DNA from: Kiritimatiellota bacterium
Lineage (GTDB): Bacteria; Verrucomicrobiota; Lentisphaeria; Oligosphaerales; JAADHN01
Length of the DNA stretch: 41,799 nucleotides
Reading direction: 5' to 3'
NCBI GenBank assembly: GCA_013151865.1
Contig: JAADHN010000172.1
Coordinates: 1 to 41,799, forward strand
Below, one piece after another: positions 3,190-8,998 of the stretch. The position numbers and the translations under genes were made by a program. The notes beneath the pieces are model-generated. The model was not told the origin of the DNA. It worked only from the letters and a program-made list of their open reading frames with translations, and did not search any database. Position 1 is the stretch's first letter. Each line of letters opens with the position of its first letter.

Positions 3190-4017
3190 ATGGACACACG
3201 GGAAAATGAACTGGATCGAAAATTGACGATTCTCCGCGCGCGACTCCGGGAATATGGGTCGGTGCTGATCGCCTTTTCGGGAGGTGTGGACTCGACTTTT
3301 CTCCTGAAAGTCGCTGTGGACGAACTCGGGTCCGCCGCAATGGCCGTAACGGCCCGGTCCGCCACGTACCCAAGCCGTGAGTTCCACGAGGCCGAATCCC
3401 TGGCCCAAAGCATGGGCGCGCGCTGGGTCGTCATCGAGAGCGACGAGCTTGACGTACCGGGGTTTCGAGAGAACCCGCCGGACCGGTGCTACTACTGCAA
3501 GGGATCTCTGTTCGGCGATCTCTTGCGAATCGCCCGGGAAAACCGTGTGGCCGTCGTCTGCGACGGATCCAATGCGGACGACCTTTCCGACCACCGCCCC
3601 GGCCGTCGGGCGGCTGCCGAACTGGGTGTGCGCAGTCCGCTGGCCGAAATCGGGCTCACCAAGACCGACATCCGGGCTTTGAGTCGGCGACTCGGACTGC
3701 CCACTTGGGACAAACCGGCGTTCGCCTGTCTTGCCTCCCGTTTTCCGTATGGGCAGCGGATCACCGAGTCCGCACTCGACGCCGTCGACCGGGCCGAAGC
3801 CGCGTTGCACGAGTTTGGTTTTGGCCAGGTACGGGTCCGTGTCCACGGCCCTGTGGCTCGAATCGAAGTGGAACCGGACCAGGTTCGGCGCGCCGTGGAA
3901 AAGCGACAGAAGATTGTGAGCGCTCTCAAGGCGTGCGGATATCATTACGTGACGCTGGATTTGGAAGGTTATCGGACCGGTAGTCTGAACGAACTCTTGC
4001 CCGATGCCCCCCCCTGA
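3190..4017 (+). CDS. larE: ATP-dependent sacrificial sulfur transferase LarE family
   Basis: PP-loop ATP pyrophosphatase of the LarE family. LarE adenylates the carboxylated pyridinium precursor and inserts sulfur to build the nickel-pincer (NPN) cofactor of lactate racemase and related enzymes. The 275 residues carry the PP-loop AFSGGVDSTFLL (about 28-39), the family motif PDRCYYCKGSLF (C100, C103), the DGSNADD segment, and PAFACLASRFPYG (C180). Having three cysteines (C100, C103, C180) rather than one resembles the LarE subtype reported to use a [4Fe-4S] cluster; that link is inference. No larB, larC or lactate racemase is visible in this window. The ATG was chosen because the upstream frame has no plausible coding. 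A T8 tract follows the stop. Confidence 0.9.
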   Translation: MDTRENELDRKLTILRARLREYGSVLIAFSGGVDSTFLLKVAVDELGSAAMAVTARSATYPSREFHEAESLAQSMGARWVVIESDELDVPGFRENPPDRCYYCKGSLFGDLLRIARENRVAVVCDGSNADDLSDHRPGRRAAAELGVRSPLAEIGLTKTDIRALSRRLGLPTWDKPAFACLASRFPYGQRITESALDAVDRAEAALHEFGFGQVRVRVHGPVARIEVEPDQVRRAVEKRQKIVSALKACGYHYVTLDLEGYRTGSLNELLPDAPP

Positions 4018-4102: not shown

Positions 4103-4178
4103 GCGGGCGTAGCTCAGTTGGTAGAGCACTACCTTGCCAAGGTAGCTGTCGACGGTTCGAGTCCGTTCGCCCGCTCCA
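4103..4178 (+). tRNA. tRNA-Gly (anticodon GCC)
   Basis: Full cloverleaf: acceptor GCGGGCG pairs with CGCCCGC; D arm GCTC/GAGC; anticodon stem CTACC/GGTAG with loop TTGCCAA, giving anticodon GCC for GGC and GGU glycine codons; T arm with TTCGAGT; discriminator T and encoded CCA (4176-4178). 76 nt. Confidence 0.97.
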
Positions 4179-5152: not shown

Positions 5153-5345
5153 ACGTGACTCATGGCGATGCCCCTCTCCTGCCCGGTTCGGTCATGAACT
5201 GCCCCGAAAACCACGAAGTGTCGCCCCAGAACGGACTCGTGAACGGACACGTGAGGTTTTGCGAGAGTCCCTCAGCCTAAGGGCGGGCTCGAATGGAGAC
5301 GGGCCAGGCGCCGCTGCAACTCCCTCGAAAGCGAATTGGTCCCGC

Positions 5346-6911
5346 ATGAAAAACGGGCCGGCACACAGTTTCCTCAGTCGGACCGGGCCGCTCCCATCCG
5401 GCCTGCCGGCATCACTGGCCGTGCCCGGCTTCGCGATGTTGGGCGTTCAACTCCTGGTGGCGGCCCTGTCGCACCCGACAACTTGGCGTGCACTCCGCGC
5501 CCTGCCGCCGGCCCAAACCTTGGTCGCGCTCGAGGTGACCGCCGGGATCCTGTATCTGGCGGCGGTCCGCTTCGCCATGCGCACCGGGGCAACCGGGGGC
5601 GCCGCCGCCAAGTCCGCCCTGGTGTGGTGCCTTGCAATCGGCGTTGCGATGCGCGTGGCGATGTTTTTCTCCACCCCCATGTTCGAGAACGACTATTATC
5701 GGTATCTGTGGGACGGCGGGGTGACGGCCCATGGGATCAACCCGTATCGCGTCTCGCCCGAAAGCCTGTCCACGGGGCGAGCCGGCGCCACAATAGTGCC
5801 GCCCACCCTGAAACAGCTGGCCCGGGACGCCGTCGGCGTGCTGCCCGGCGTCAATCATCCCCGGCTTCGCACCATCTACCCGCCGGCGGCCCAGGCCGCA
5901 TTTGCACTCGCCCACATTCTGAGTCCATGGGACCTTCAGGCCTGGCGGTTGGTTCTCCTGTTCTGCGAGGCGGCAGGCTTGGTGTTGCTGCTGCGCGGTG
6001 TCCGTTCCGCGGACCGGCGGCTTGTCCTGGCCGTCATTTACTGGTGGTCGCCCTTGTCAATCAAAGAGATCGTCAACTCCGCCCACATGGACGCTCTGCT
6101 TTTCCCCTTGCTACTCGGCTGCCTGCTCCTGGCTTCTCGAAAGCGCACGACCGGGGCGGCTTTCCTGCTGGCGCTGGCGGCGGGGGTCAAAGTCTGGCCC
6201 GTTCTTCTGGCGCCTCTTGTGTTGCGCCCGGTCCTGGCTCGACCAAAACGCCTCGCTGCAGCCCTCGCGGCTTTTGTCGTACCTGTCTTGGCCATGGCGA
6301 TCTTCATGTGGCCGGCCTTTCGCGGGGCCGATTCCGGATTCAACACCTACAGCCGCACCTGGGAAATGAACGATGCTTTGTACATGGTCGTGTTCTGGAC
6401 GACACGTCTTGCAGCCCGTCTCTCCGGCGCCCCCGACGCGGCAACCGTTCATGTTTCCGCTCGAGCCGTGATCGGAGTCGGCCTCCTGGCTTGGGCCGTA
6501 TGGTGCGCTCGAGCCCGCCTTGATTCTTTCGAAGGCTTGGCCGGACGCGCCGGTGCGGTCACGGCAGCACTCTTTCTTTTCAGCCCGACCCAGTTCCCGT
6601 GGTATGGTCTGTGGCTGTTGCCGTTTCTGGCGATAGCGCCATCGCGCCCACTTCTCTTGCTCCAGGTCACTCTGCCGCTCTACTACTTGAGGTTCCCGAT
6701 GCAGGCCGCAGGTCACGCCGATCTCTTCGATTCCGGCGTGGTGTGGATCGAATTCGGTCCGGTCCTTGCCCTCATGTCTTGGGAGGCCCTGCGTCGATAT
6801 TCGGCACGCCGCCGCGACCCCGGGCCGGCACCATCCGGAAGAACTCCTGGCCCGCATTCCACGCCGAACGAAGCGGACATGGACTCGGTTTCGCCATCGC
6901 CTGCCACGTGA
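5346..6911 (+). CDS. Polytopic GT87-like (DUF2029) glycosyltransferase
   Basis: Integral membrane protein of about 521 residues with roughly ten hydrophobic segments. It resembles GT-C glycosyltransferases of the GT87/DUF2029 group, which use polyprenyl-phosphate sugars (typically mannose) at the outer face of the membrane. The first extracytoplasmic loop carries ENDYYRYLWDGG followed by INPYRVSPE (about 113-140), the acidic loop expected for such enzymes. The HMDALLFPLLLGC segment also fits. The ATG at 5346 is preferred; a TTG at 5259 would add 29 unconvincing residues, and the binding site is weak in both cases. The next gene begins 44 bp downstream and encodes glycosyltransferases, suggesting a joint pathway. 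Donor and acceptor are unknown. Confidence 0.75.
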   Translation: MKNGPAHSFLSRTGPLPSGLPASLAVPGFAMLGVQLLVAALSHPTTWRALRALPPAQTLVALEVTAGILYLAAVRFAMRTGATGGAAAKSALVWCLAIGVAMRVAMFFSTPMFENDYYRYLWDGGVTAHGINPYRVSPESLSTGRAGATIVPPTLKQLARDAVGVLPGVNHPRLRTIYPPAAQAAFALAHILSPWDLQAWRLVLLFCEAAGLVLLLRGVRSADRRLVLAVIYWWSPLSIKEIVNSAHMDALLFPLLLGCLLLASRKRTTGAAFLLALAAGVKVWPVLLAPLVLRPVLARPKRLAAALAAFVVPVLAMAIFMWPAFRGADSGFNTYSRTWEMNDALYMVVFWTTRLAARLSGAPDAATVHVSARAVIGVGLLAWAVWCARARLDSFEGLAGRAGAVTAALFLFSPTQFPWYGLWLLPFLAIAPSRPLLLLQVTLPLYYLRFPMQAAGHADLFDSGVVWIEFGPVLALMSWEALRRYSARRRDPGPAPSGRTPGPHSTPNEADMDSVSPSPAT

Positions 6912-6955: not shown

Positions 6956-8998
6956 ATGAGAAAAGACGCCTGCATTGCCGTTGTGATCCCGGCCCTGAAC
7001 GAGGAAGCATCCCTTGGAAAAGTCGTCGAGGCGATCCCCGAATGGGTAGACCATGTCGTGGTAGTGGACAACGGTTCGGTCGACGCCACTGCCGAGGTCG
7101 GACGAAAAGCGGGCGCCCGAGTGGTTCGCGAACCGCGGCGCGGCTACGGGCAGGCTTGCCTCGCCGGCCTTGCGGTTGTCCGGAACAAGGCAGACGTGGT
7201 CGTTTTCCTGGACGCCGATTTCAGCGACGACCCGAACTGCATGGACCGACTTGTGGATCCCGTAGCCACGGGAGCTGCCGATCTGGTCATCGGCTCTCGC
7301 ACTCTCGGGGAACGAGAAAAAGGCGCGCTCACCCTCCAGGCCCGTTTCGGCAACTGGTTGGCCTGCCGCCTGATCCGACTGTTCTGGGGGGTGGGCTATA
7401 CAGACCTTGGTCCATTCCGGGCCGCTGACGCAGCCGCACTCGAACGACTGCAAATGCAGGACCGGGACTACGGATGGACGGTCGAGATGCAGATCAAGGC
7501 GGCCTGCCGGGGCCTCCGCGTCCGGGAAGTCCCGACTCCTTACCGTCGGCGGGTCGGGAAGTCGAAGATCTCCGGCACGGTGCGCGGCGTGCTTGGGGCA
7601 GGCACGAAGATCCTGGGCTGGGTTTTCGCCGCGGCCCTGAAGTCGGCATGGGACTGGTTGTTGTCGCGTCCGGAGTCGACACGCTTGGTCGTGTTTTCCC
7701 GTTTTCCTCGTACCGGGGCCTGCAAAACCCGGATGATCCCGGCTTTGGGTGCGGAGGAAGCGGCCCAACTTCAACGGGGCATGACGGAGCACGCCTTCAA
7801 CACGGCTTGCGAACTCCGCAGAATCAGAAACGCGGAAATCGAGGTCCGGTTCACCGGCGGCGATCCCGACGAATTCCAGTCGTGGCTCGGTGACAATGCC
7901 CTCTATACGCCGCAAGGCGATGGGACACTCGGGGACCGAATGCGGCGGGCCGTTCGCGACGCGTTTGCCCGAGGGTCCGCCGGAACGGTGATCATCGGGG
8001 CCGACTGTCCCGGGGTCACTGCCGCACTTCTCGGGCAAGCCTTCGACGCCTTGTCCGGGAACGACCTCGTACTCGGTCCGGCACTGGACGGCGGTTACTA
8101 TCTGATTGGTATGTCCCGCCCGATCCCCGACCTTTTCCGGATCATGGCGTGGGGAAGTGCCACCGTACTGGAAGAGAGCCTGGCTCGGGCGCGACGCGCC
8201 GGCCTTGCCGTCAGGCTCCTACCTGCGCTGGGGGATGTGGACCGCCCGGAAGACCTGGAGCTCTGGCGGCAGACCCCGGCGGCCCATGCCCCGCAGACCA
8301 TAACGGTGGTGATTACCGCCCTGAACGAAGAAGAATATGTTGGCAACGCCGTCGACAGCGCCCTCACGGTTCCCGGAACCGAGGTGATCGTGGTGGACGG
8401 CGGCAGCAACGATAGGACGGTCGAGACAGCCAAGGCACGCGGGGCGAGCGCGGTGTGCGTGTCCCCGTCTGCGTATGGGAGGGCCGCTCAAATGAATGCC
8501 GGCGCACGACTGGCACACGGCGACGCCCTCCTTTTTCTCCACGCCGACGCGCGCCTCCCACCGGGATTCGGCCGGGAACTGCGCCGAATCCTGGCAACCC
8601 CCGGGGTCGTCGCCGGGGCCTTTCGGTTGCATATCGCGGACCCCGCACGGCGTTTTCGTTGGGTCGAGCGTGCCGTGTTCTTGCGGTCGAAACTGCTGGG
8701 CGCGCCCCACGGCGATCAGGGCTTGTTCATGAAACGCGACCTCTTCGAGGCCGTCGGAGGGTTCGAAAATCAGCCCGTCCTCGAAGACTTGGACATCCTC
8801 CGCCGCCTTCGGCCACATGGCCGAATCGTGCTCGGAGACCTGGCCGTGACCACGCCGGCTCGGCGCTGGAAAAGCGCCGGCACGTTCCGCACAACCATCG
8901 TCAACCACGTGCTCCTGCTCAAGGCCCTGGGGACCCACGTCCGCCGGGACGTGCCCACCCGGATTCATGCCAGGAACAAGAGCCCGGGGCTACGGTGA
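6956..8998 (+). CDS. Three-domain glycosyltransferase fusion: GT2 + TIGR04282-like + TIGR04283-like
   Basis: A 680-residue protein made of three enzymes in one chain. Residues about 1-235 form a GT2 domain (IAVVIPALNEEASLGKVV, then VVFLDADFSDDP) of the dolichyl-phosphate-mannose-synthase-like kind, but without its membrane anchors. Residues about 242-445 form a DUF2064/TIGR04282-like nucleotidyltransferase-fold domain (LVVFSRFPRTGACKTRM, IIGADCPG, LDGGYYLIG, DVDRPEDL). Residues about 447-680 form a second GT2 domain of the TIGR04283 type (VVITALNEEEYV, VDGGSNDRT, LFLHADARLP, GDQGLFMKRDLF). The last two are known partners in rSAM/selenodomain (arsenosugar-type) loci. The ATG at 6956 follows GAAGG. 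It lies 44 bp after the GT87-like gene and is probably co-transcribed. Confidence 0.87.
   Translation: MRKDACIAVVIPALNEEASLGKVVEAIPEWVDHVVVVDNGSVDATAEVGRKAGARVVREPRRGYGQACLAGLAVVRNKADVVVFLDADFSDDPNCMDRLVDPVATGAADLVIGSRTLGEREKGALTLQARFGNWLACRLIRLFWGVGYTDLGPFRAADAAALERLQMQDRDYGWTVEMQIKAACRGLRVREVPTPYRRRVGKSKISGTVRGVLGAGTKILGWVFAAALKSAWDWLLSRPESTRLVVFSRFPRTGACKTRMIPALGAEEAAQLQRGMTEHAFNTACELRRIRNAEIEVRFTGGDPDEFQSWLGDNALYTPQGDGTLGDRMRRAVRDAFARGSAGTVIIGADCPGVTAALLGQAFDALSGNDLVLGPALDGGYYLIGMSRPIPDLFRIMAWGSATVLEESLARARRAGLAVRLLPALGDVDRPEDLELWRQTPAAHAPQTITVVITALNEEEYVGNAVDSALTVPGTEVIVVDGGSNDRTVETAKARGASAVCVSPSAYGRAAQMNAGARLAHGDALLFLHADARLPPGFGRELRRILATPGVVAGAFRLHIADPARRFRWVERAVFLRSKLLGAPHGDQGLFMKRDLFEAVGGFENQPVLEDLDILRRLRPHGRIVLGDLAVTTPARRWKSAGTFRTTIVNHVLLLKALGTHVRRDVPTRIHARNKSPGLR

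What the first reader, a model, noticed from the sequence alone, without database searches (positions are those of the whole stretch)
6956..8998. Three glycosyltransferase-type domains fused in one protein next to a GT87-like membrane enzyme
TIGR04282- and TIGR04283-like domains are known as partners near rSAM/selenodomain (arsenosugar-type) genes. Here they are fused behind a third, dolichyl-phosphate-sugar-synthase-like GT2 domain, and placed 44 bp after a polyprenyl-phosphate-sugar-using type of transferase. No ArsM- or ArsS-like gene is visible. The fusion could channel an activated sugar through successive steps, or the domains may serve a pathway other than arsenosugars.
Basis: partly seen in the sequence, partly recalled or inferred. 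Interest (0 to 1): 0.6.

Follow-up and report, generated by a model that had tools for sequence, protein, structure and literature searches.

The report
Three-domain sugar enzyme, arsenosugar gene set
A bacterium carries one protein that joins three sugar-handling enzyme domains and sits behind a membrane sugar transferase; relatives carry the same parts, fused or separate, next to or in the same genome as the genes that make arsenic-containing sugars, so it probably performs the unsolved later steps of that pathway.

Summary
Window 6956-8998 is one uninterrupted 680-aa frame with a DPM1/AglJ-like GT2 (D1), TIGR04282/DUF2064 (D2) and TIGR04283 (D3), 44 bp behind a GT87 gene. A same-order relative has the same fusion at 49% identity, behind a 43%-identical GT87, so it is no assembly artefact.

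In the relative the order on one contig is ArsS / DUF547-ArsM-GT87-fusion. Only 4 of 149 class genomes have ArsS, and all four carry D2 and D3. The same parts occur in at least six other fusions and as separate genes.

The middle domain looks misnamed: its motifs, fold neighbours (FbiD/CofC guanylyltransferases, GlmU, KdsB) and, in some Flavobacteria, a neighbouring nucleoside phosphorylase point to a nucleotidyltransferase.

Best reading: D2 makes an NDP-sugar, probably from arsenoribose-1-phosphate; D1 loads it on polyprenyl phosphate; GT87 and D3 transfer it. Pathway membership is well supported; substrates and step order are inference. D2-D3 fusions without ArsS, often beside ArsM, mean related pathways exist. 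New variant of a known kind.

The parts
5259..6911 (+). GT87-type membrane glycosyltransferase (ORF opens at TTG 5259; ATG at 5346 is the likelier start)
   Evidence: PF09594 34 bits, cut-off 25; 43% identical to the GT87 directly before the triple fusion in G101/L012; about 9 hydrophobic segments by simple hydropathy; D145, R148, Y149, W151 and H276 invariant in 14 GT87s of this kind
6956..8998 (+). 680-aa triple-domain protein (D1-D2-D3)
   Evidence: single open frame; homologues of the same architecture in L012 and L011; AlphaFold2 mean pLDDT 85, below 50 only at 237-239 and 661-680; pTM 0.50, so domain arrangement is uncertain
6956..7660 (+). D1: dolichyl/polyprenyl-phosphate-sugar-synthase-like GT2 domain (residues 1-235)
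   Evidence: AglJ model residues 7-204, 157 bits; Glycos_transf_2; matches GpgS, ArnC and dolichyl-phosphate mannose synthase by sequence and fold; D86, D88, R115 and R155 invariant in 77 sequences
7685..8257 (+). D2: TIGR04282/DUF2064 domain, nucleotidyltransferase-like (residues 244-434)
   Evidence: TIGR04282 203.6 bits over cut-off; model pLDDT 95.5; Foldseek 3cgx, then 3-PG guanylyltransferase 7p97, FbiD, GlmU, KdsB; KTR...GxD.P...DVD.PEDL motif
8300..8926 (+). D3: TIGR04283 GT2 domain (residues 449-657)
   Evidence: 247.7 bits, cut-off 182; H529-A530-D531, E610-D611 and R636 invariant in 16 sequences

Best explanation
The protein is a compacted sugar-activation and transfer enzyme of an arsenosugar/arsenolipid-type pathway, working with the adjacent GT87 and with ArsM and ArsS encoded elsewhere in the genome. 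Proposed route: ArsM methylates arsenite; ArsS adds the 5'-deoxyadenosyl group; a nucleoside phosphorylase or nucleosidase removes adenine, in the phosphorylase case leaving 5-deoxy-5-dimethylarsinoyl-ribose-1-phosphate; D2 couples this sugar phosphate to an NTP, giving an NDP-sugar; D1 moves the sugar to polyprenyl phosphate; GT87 transfers it at the membrane to its final acceptor; D3 makes the soluble or second glycosidic bond. Shown here: architecture, conserved residues, co-occurrence, fusion network, fold class of D2. Known from the literature: ArsM and ArsS chemistry. Inferred: D2 as nucleotidyltransferase (about 0.75), arsenoribose as the substrate (about 0.5), polyprenyl-phosphate intermediate (about 0.5), order of steps and acceptor (low). 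The confidence below is for membership of an ArsM/ArsS-type arsenosugar or arsenolipid pathway with D2 as the activating enzyme, not for every step.
For: Own genome: ArsS over cut-off and an ArsM-like gene 58 bp apart on contig C52; tetranucleotide profile of that contig is the closest to the window of 90 stretches (r = 0.985, next 0.944). Same-order relative L012: ArsS facing away, then DUF547, ArsM, GT87, triple fusion on one contig. Class: ArsS in 4/149 genomes, TIGR04282 in 14/149, all 4 ArsS genomes inside the 14 (P = 5e-5). Fusions joining the same parts elsewhere: D1-D2, D2-D3, D3-D2, GT87-D3, BcsA-GT87-D3 (next to D2-ArsS), GT87-D1. Bacteroidota with D1-BcsA(-GT87) and no local ArsS: 16/19 have ArsS elsewhere, against 31/197 class background. 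ArsS-centred sample of 19 loci independently recovers D2 (6), D3 (4), GT87 (2), D1 (1), ArsM (7). Purine-nucleoside phosphorylase directly after D2 in Flavobacterial ArsS/ArsM clusters. D2 fold and motifs. Family-invariant residues of all four domains kept.
Against: ArsM/ArsS are not next to the fusion in this genome; TIGR04169 and DUF547, frequent partners, were not found in it. Ten of 14 TIGR04282 genomes in the class lack ArsS, and 13 of 17 D2-D3-type genomes in the phylum lack it. Seven alphaproteobacterial GT87-D1 genomes all lack ArsS. A plasmid carries the full unfused set (BcsA, GT87, FAD/Fe-S, D1, D2, D3) with no ArsS on the whole plasmid. The ArsM-like protein is below the family cut-off (194 vs 263 bits). 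No substrate has been tested.
Confidence: 0.55

Rival explanations
1. The domains are an ordinary polyprenyl-phosphate-sugar-dependent surface glycosylation module (lipid, glycan or protein) that uses common sugars; its co-occurrence with arsenic genes is incidental or ecological.
For: D1 and GT87 are the standard kind of pair for polyprenyl-phosphate-sugar glycosylation (general knowledge); the pair occurs in 7 alphaproteobacterial genomes without ArsS and the full set on a Pseudoalteromonas plasmid without ArsS; the window has several glycoside hydrolase genes.
Against: Repeated gene fusion and adjacency of the same parts with ArsS, ArsM and TIGR04169 in several phyla; ArsM within a few genes of GT87-D1 in Hyphomicrobium and Methylocystis; 16/19 versus 31/197 ArsS co-occurrence in Bacteroidota.
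Confidence: 0.25
2. The module serves a sister pathway that starts from ArsM but uses another radical SAM enzyme (Rv1681-like) instead of ArsS, making a different C-As or other 5-deoxyribosyl product; the fusion in this genome may serve both.
For: ArsS-less D2-D3 loci carry ArsM, an Rv1681-like radical SAM protein, DUF547, a VTT protein and a FAD oxidoreductase (L178, L180 with ArsA/ArsD-like genes, L181). In a Planctomycetota MAG that radical SAM is fused to ArsM right after BcsA-GT87-D1.
Against: The window genome and the two other triple-fusion genomes (L012, L011) have true ArsS; I did not search this genome for Rv1681-like proteins specifically.
Confidence: 0.15
3. Sequencing or assembly artefact joining neighbouring genes.
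For: The data are an assembly of 176 contigs, apparently a MAG.
Against: Same architecture at 49% identity in an independent same-order genome and in a Syntrophaceae MAG; D2-D3 alone is fused in about 15 further phylum genomes.
Confidence: 0.01

Closest known systems
TIGR04282 and TIGR04283 'arsenosugar biosynthesis glycosyltransferases' (NCBIfam)
   Same: D2 and D3 score above the curated cut-offs; D2-D3 fusions are common in the phylum
   Different: Here both are fused behind a DPM1-like GT2; D2 looks like a nucleotidyltransferase although the family is named a glycosyltransferase
3cgx, DUF2064 structure from Desulfovibrio desulfuricans
   Same: Same family as D2: 32% identity, TM 0.88
   Different: Stand-alone protein; function not determined ('putative nucleotide-diphospho-sugar transferase')
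CofC/FbiD-type guanylyltransferases (7p97, Rv2983)
   Same: Next-best folds to D2; KTRL, metal-site Asp and DVD.P.DL motifs align
   Different: 18-26% identity; D2 is far below the CofC cut-off (32 vs 105 bits) and has its own GP.DGGYYL.G motif
Dolichyl-phosphate mannose synthase / ArnC / AglJ
   Same: GT2 fold and invariant DxD residues of D1
   Different: AglJ equivalog cut-off not met; no C-terminal multi-span membrane domain; fused to D2-D3
ArnC-ArnT (aminoarabinose-lipid A) pathway
   Same: Works-like comparison from general knowledge: a GT2 loads a sugar on polyprenyl phosphate and a membrane GT uses it
   Different: Different membrane GT family and different proposed sugar; analogy only

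Membership tests
TIGR04282 | Score above curated cut-off (134 bits) | tested here: met
   203.6 bits, full model 1-189
TIGR04282 | Glycosyltransferase activity implied by the name | not testable with these tools
   Fold and motifs point to nucleotidyltransferase instead
TIGR04283 | Score above curated cut-off (182 bits) | tested here: met
   247.7 bits, model 1-208/221
AglJ / dolichyl-phosphate sugar synthase | AglJ equivalog cut-off (TIGR04182, 325 bits) | tested here: not met
   157 bits; works like, not filed as, AglJ
AglJ / dolichyl-phosphate sugar synthase | GT2 fold of the DPMS/ArnC/GpgS type with DxD | tested here: met
   D86 and D88 invariant
GT87 | PF09594 gathering score and multi-spanning protein | tested here: met
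   34 vs 25 bits; about 9 hydrophobic segments
CofC 2-phospholactate guanylyltransferase | TIGR03552 cut-off (105 bits) | tested here: not met
   32.1 bits; so nucleotidyltransferase-like, not CofC
Arsenosugar biosynthesis gene set | ArsS (TIGR04167) in the genome | tested here: met
   403 bits, cut-off 300, contig C52
Arsenosugar biosynthesis gene set | ArsM in the genome | tested here: inconclusive
   NF008823 194 bits, cut-off 263, adjacent to ArsS
Arsenosugar biosynthesis gene set | Adjacency of the GT genes to arsM/arsS | tested here: inconclusive
   Not in this genome; yes in L012 and, for ArsS, L011
Arsenosugar biosynthesis gene set | TIGR04169 peroxidase-like partner in the genome | tested here: not met
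   No match in G000; present in G101
Arsenosugar biosynthesis gene set | Production of arsenosugars | not testable with these tools
   Needs culture or heterologous expression

The most novel reading that the evidence does not exclude
The set D1-D2-D3-GT87 (with a BcsA-like GT2 in many Bacteroidota) is the missing later half of bacterial arsenosugar/arsenolipid synthesis: D2 makes nucleotide-activated arsenoribose and D1 makes polyprenyl-phosphate-arsenoribose, a lipid-linked arsenical donor not described in the literature I could search, which GT87 delivers to a membrane lipid or surface glycan.
Probability: 0.25. Interest if true: 0.85.

Novelty: new variant of a known kind. Interest (0 to 1): 0.55.

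Why it matters
The C-As bond-forming steps of arsenosugar synthesis (ArsM, ArsS) are known, but I found no paper in the held library that assigns enzymes to the activation and glycosylation steps. The triple fusion and its relatives tie a DPM1-like synthase and a GT87 membrane enzyme to the two named partners, and suggest the 'glycosyltransferase' TIGR04282 is a nucleotidyltransferase. That gives a concrete, testable gene list for the second half of the pathway, and implies that bacteria outside cyanobacteria, Bacteroidota included, may make arsenosugars or arsenolipids.

Tried and rejected
Assembly artefact: rejected by independent copies. 'No ArsS in this organism': rejected. TIGR04282/04283 as strict arsenosugar markers: rejected, most genomes with them lack ArsS. 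Triple fusion as a common architecture: rejected, the window genome is the only one among 388 sampled phylum genomes; two others are known (L011, L012). A single origin of all fused D1s: L011, L012, L013 and L016 form a supported clade (97/85), but the window's D1 is unresolved beside them, so one or two fusion events cannot be told apart. My first label 'rSAMb' mixed ArsM and radical SAM proteins because one protein (L083) fuses them; corrected. Literature searches for TIGR04283 and DUF2064 found no paper. The full-length model gives no reliable domain arrangement (pTM 0.50), so channelling between domains was not assessed.

Full report
Observation. Window 6956-8998 encodes a 680-aa protein in one open frame. 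NCBIfam and Pfam find three domains: an AglJ/DPM1-like GT2 (D1, residues 7-204), TIGR04282/DUF2064 (D2, 244-434) and TIGR04283 (D3, 449-657); D2 and D3 are above the curated cut-offs. The upstream ORF ends 44 bp earlier and matches GT87 above the Pfam gathering score. It has about nine hydrophobic segments. Family-invariant residues are kept in all four domains.

Is the fusion real? A same-order genome (G101, the same contig as L012, JABHEG010000042, Lentisphaerae) has the same three domains in the same order, 49% identical end to end, starting inside the stop of a GT87 gene that is 43% identical to the window's. A Syntrophaceae MAG (L011) has a third copy at 49%. The fusion is rare: only the window genome has it among 388 sampled genomes of the phylum, where about 15 others have D2-D3 alone. 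In the D1 tree the fused D1s of L011, L012, L013 and L016 group together (97/85); the window's D1 lies in the same larger group but is not resolved with them.

Arsenic genes. The genome search finds ArsS (403 bits, cut-off 300) and, 58 bp downstream of it, an ArsM-like methyltransferase (194 bits, below the cut-off of 263) on contig C52, with a 4Fe-4S protein upstream. C52 matches the window's tetranucleotide profile best of 90 stretches compared (r = 0.985, next 0.944), so a binning error is unlikely; but binning itself uses such profiles, and the two contigs are not physically linked. In L012 all are on one contig: ArsS on the minus strand with a TIGR04169 match beside it, then DUF547, ArsM, GT87 and the triple fusion on the plus strand. 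L011 has TIGR04169, ArsS, a GH15-like gene, then the triple fusion.

Co-occurrence. In the class ArsS passes its cut-off in 4 of 149 genomes, TIGR04282 is found in 14 and TIGR04283 in 13; all four ArsS genomes carry both (P = 5e-5). The reverse is not true: most D2/D3 genomes lack ArsS. In the phylum ArsS is in 21 of 388 genomes and D2-D3-type proteins in 17, with 4 shared (P = 0.01). These P values ignore relatedness of genomes.

Fusion network. The same parts are joined in many ways: D1-D2 behind GT87 (L013), D2-D3 (many), D3-D2 near ArsS (L063), GT87-D3 beside BcsA and near ArsS (L136), BcsA-GT87-D3 directly after D2-ArsS (L102, L103), GT87-D1 beside a DUF2064 gene, a radical SAM gene and a carboxymuconolactone-decarboxylase-family gene (L171), and D1-D2-D3. 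A Pseudoalteromonas plasmid has all parts unfused in one run: BcsA, GT87, FAD/Fe-S protein, D1, D2, D3, without ArsS anywhere on the plasmid. The window's two genes are therefore a compact form of a wider multi-gene set.

Independent samples. From 80 loci fetched by similarity to the fusion (76 with D1), 9 have ArsS, 9 ArsM, 8 the TIGR04169-like gene and 5 a purine-nucleoside phosphorylase within about 10 kb. From 19 ArsS-centred loci in the phylum, 6 have D2, 4 D3, 2 GT87, 1 D1 and 7 ArsM by the same kind of search. Among Bacteroidota-type genomes with D1-BcsA(-GT87) and no ArsS nearby, 16 of 19 have ArsS elsewhere against 31 of 197 in the class of one of them. D1 loci without that module also had ArsS in 6 of 14 genomes, and seven alphaproteobacterial GT87-D1 genomes had none. 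ArsM-like genes, 51-53% identical to the ArsM-like proteins used as queries (own genome's and L012's), lie near GT87-D1 in Hyphomicrobium and Methylocystis.

ArsS-less loci. D2-D3 fusions in genomes without ArsS often sit with an ArsM-like gene and, in several, an Rv1681-like radical SAM gene, DUF547, a VTT membrane protein and a FAD oxidoreductase; one has ArsA/ArsD-like genes downstream (judged by eye from the sequence). In a Planctomycetota MAG that radical SAM domain is fused to the ArsM domain directly after BcsA-GT87-D1 (L083). So the arsenic link is wider than ArsS, and a sister pathway is likely.

What D2 does. TIGR04282 is named a glycosyltransferase. The D2 model is confident (pLDDT 95.5). 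After its own family (3cgx) its best PDB matches are 3-phosphoglycerate guanylyltransferase, FbiD (Rv2983), GlmU, KdsB and IspD. Sequence motifs align with FbiD: KTRL, the metal-site Asp in GxD.P, and DVD.P.DL. In Flavobacterial clusters a purine-nucleoside phosphorylase directly follows D2, in the run AhpD-ArsS-(rhodanese-like)-D2-PNP-ArsM (L071; also L052, L054, L087). A phosphorylase would turn the ArsS product into a sugar-1-phosphate, the natural substrate of a nucleotidyltransferase. This is the main mechanistic inference of the report.

Mechanism. ArsS is described as the enzyme that adenosylates arsenic in oxo-arsenosugar synthesis (PMC12159101, citing Cheng 2021). For an algal phytyl arsenoriboside a route by adenine removal followed by transfer to phytyl diphosphate has been proposed (PMC10456119), so isoprenoid-linked arsenoribosides exist in nature. 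I propose D2 makes NDP-arsenoribose, D1 loads it on polyprenyl phosphate, GT87 uses it at the membrane, and D3 makes a further or alternative glycosidic bond. Steps after ArsS are inference; substrates and acceptor were not tested.

Against. The gene set is split over two contigs here, the genome lacks detectable DUF547 and TIGR04169, and the module occurs without ArsS in other lineages. An ordinary polyprenyl-phosphate glycosylation role, or an ArsS-independent sister pathway, remains possible.

Novelty. All four domains belong to described families and the arsenic link of D2 and D3 is already in NCBI's names. New here are the triple architecture, the inclusion of D1 and GT87 (and BcsA) in the set by fusion and co-occurrence, and the reassignment of D2. 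I found no paper on them in the held library, which does not cover most subscription journals.

Noticed in passing
L083:10715-12544: Radical SAM domain (Rv1681-like) fused to an ArsM-like methyltransferase in a Planctomycetota MAG, directly after BcsA-GT87-D1.
   Followed up: partly
L102:10385-13861 and L103:10144-13647: 1159-1168-aa fusion of BcsA-like GT2, GT87 and TIGR04283 directly after D2 and ArsS in two genomes of the class.
   Followed up: partly
L171:427-7669 (Miltoncostaea oceani plasmid): GT87-D1 fusion beside a radical SAM gene, a carboxymuconolactone-decarboxylase-family gene and DUF2064, with selA, selB and selD a few genes away.
   Followed up: partly
L172:1720-9482 (Pseudoalteromonas plasmid pPBSW1): Complete unfused set BcsA, GT87, FAD/Fe-S protein, D1, D2, D3 on a plasmid without ArsS.
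   Followed up: yes
window 3190-4017: LarE-type sulfur transferase (TIGR00268, 343 bits, cut-off 150) just upstream of a tRNA-Gly gene at 4103-4178.
   Followed up: no
L101:9755-10516: Unassigned 253-aa protein with 4Fe-4S motifs directly upstream of arsS-arsM in the window's genome; no Pfam family.
   Followed up: partly
L169 and L170: Actinobacterial plasmids carry DUF2064 (with an annotated GT2 before it in L169) followed by a SAM methyltransferase, with molybdopterin oxidoreductases nearby; one has an MTA phosphorylase nearby.
   Followed up: no
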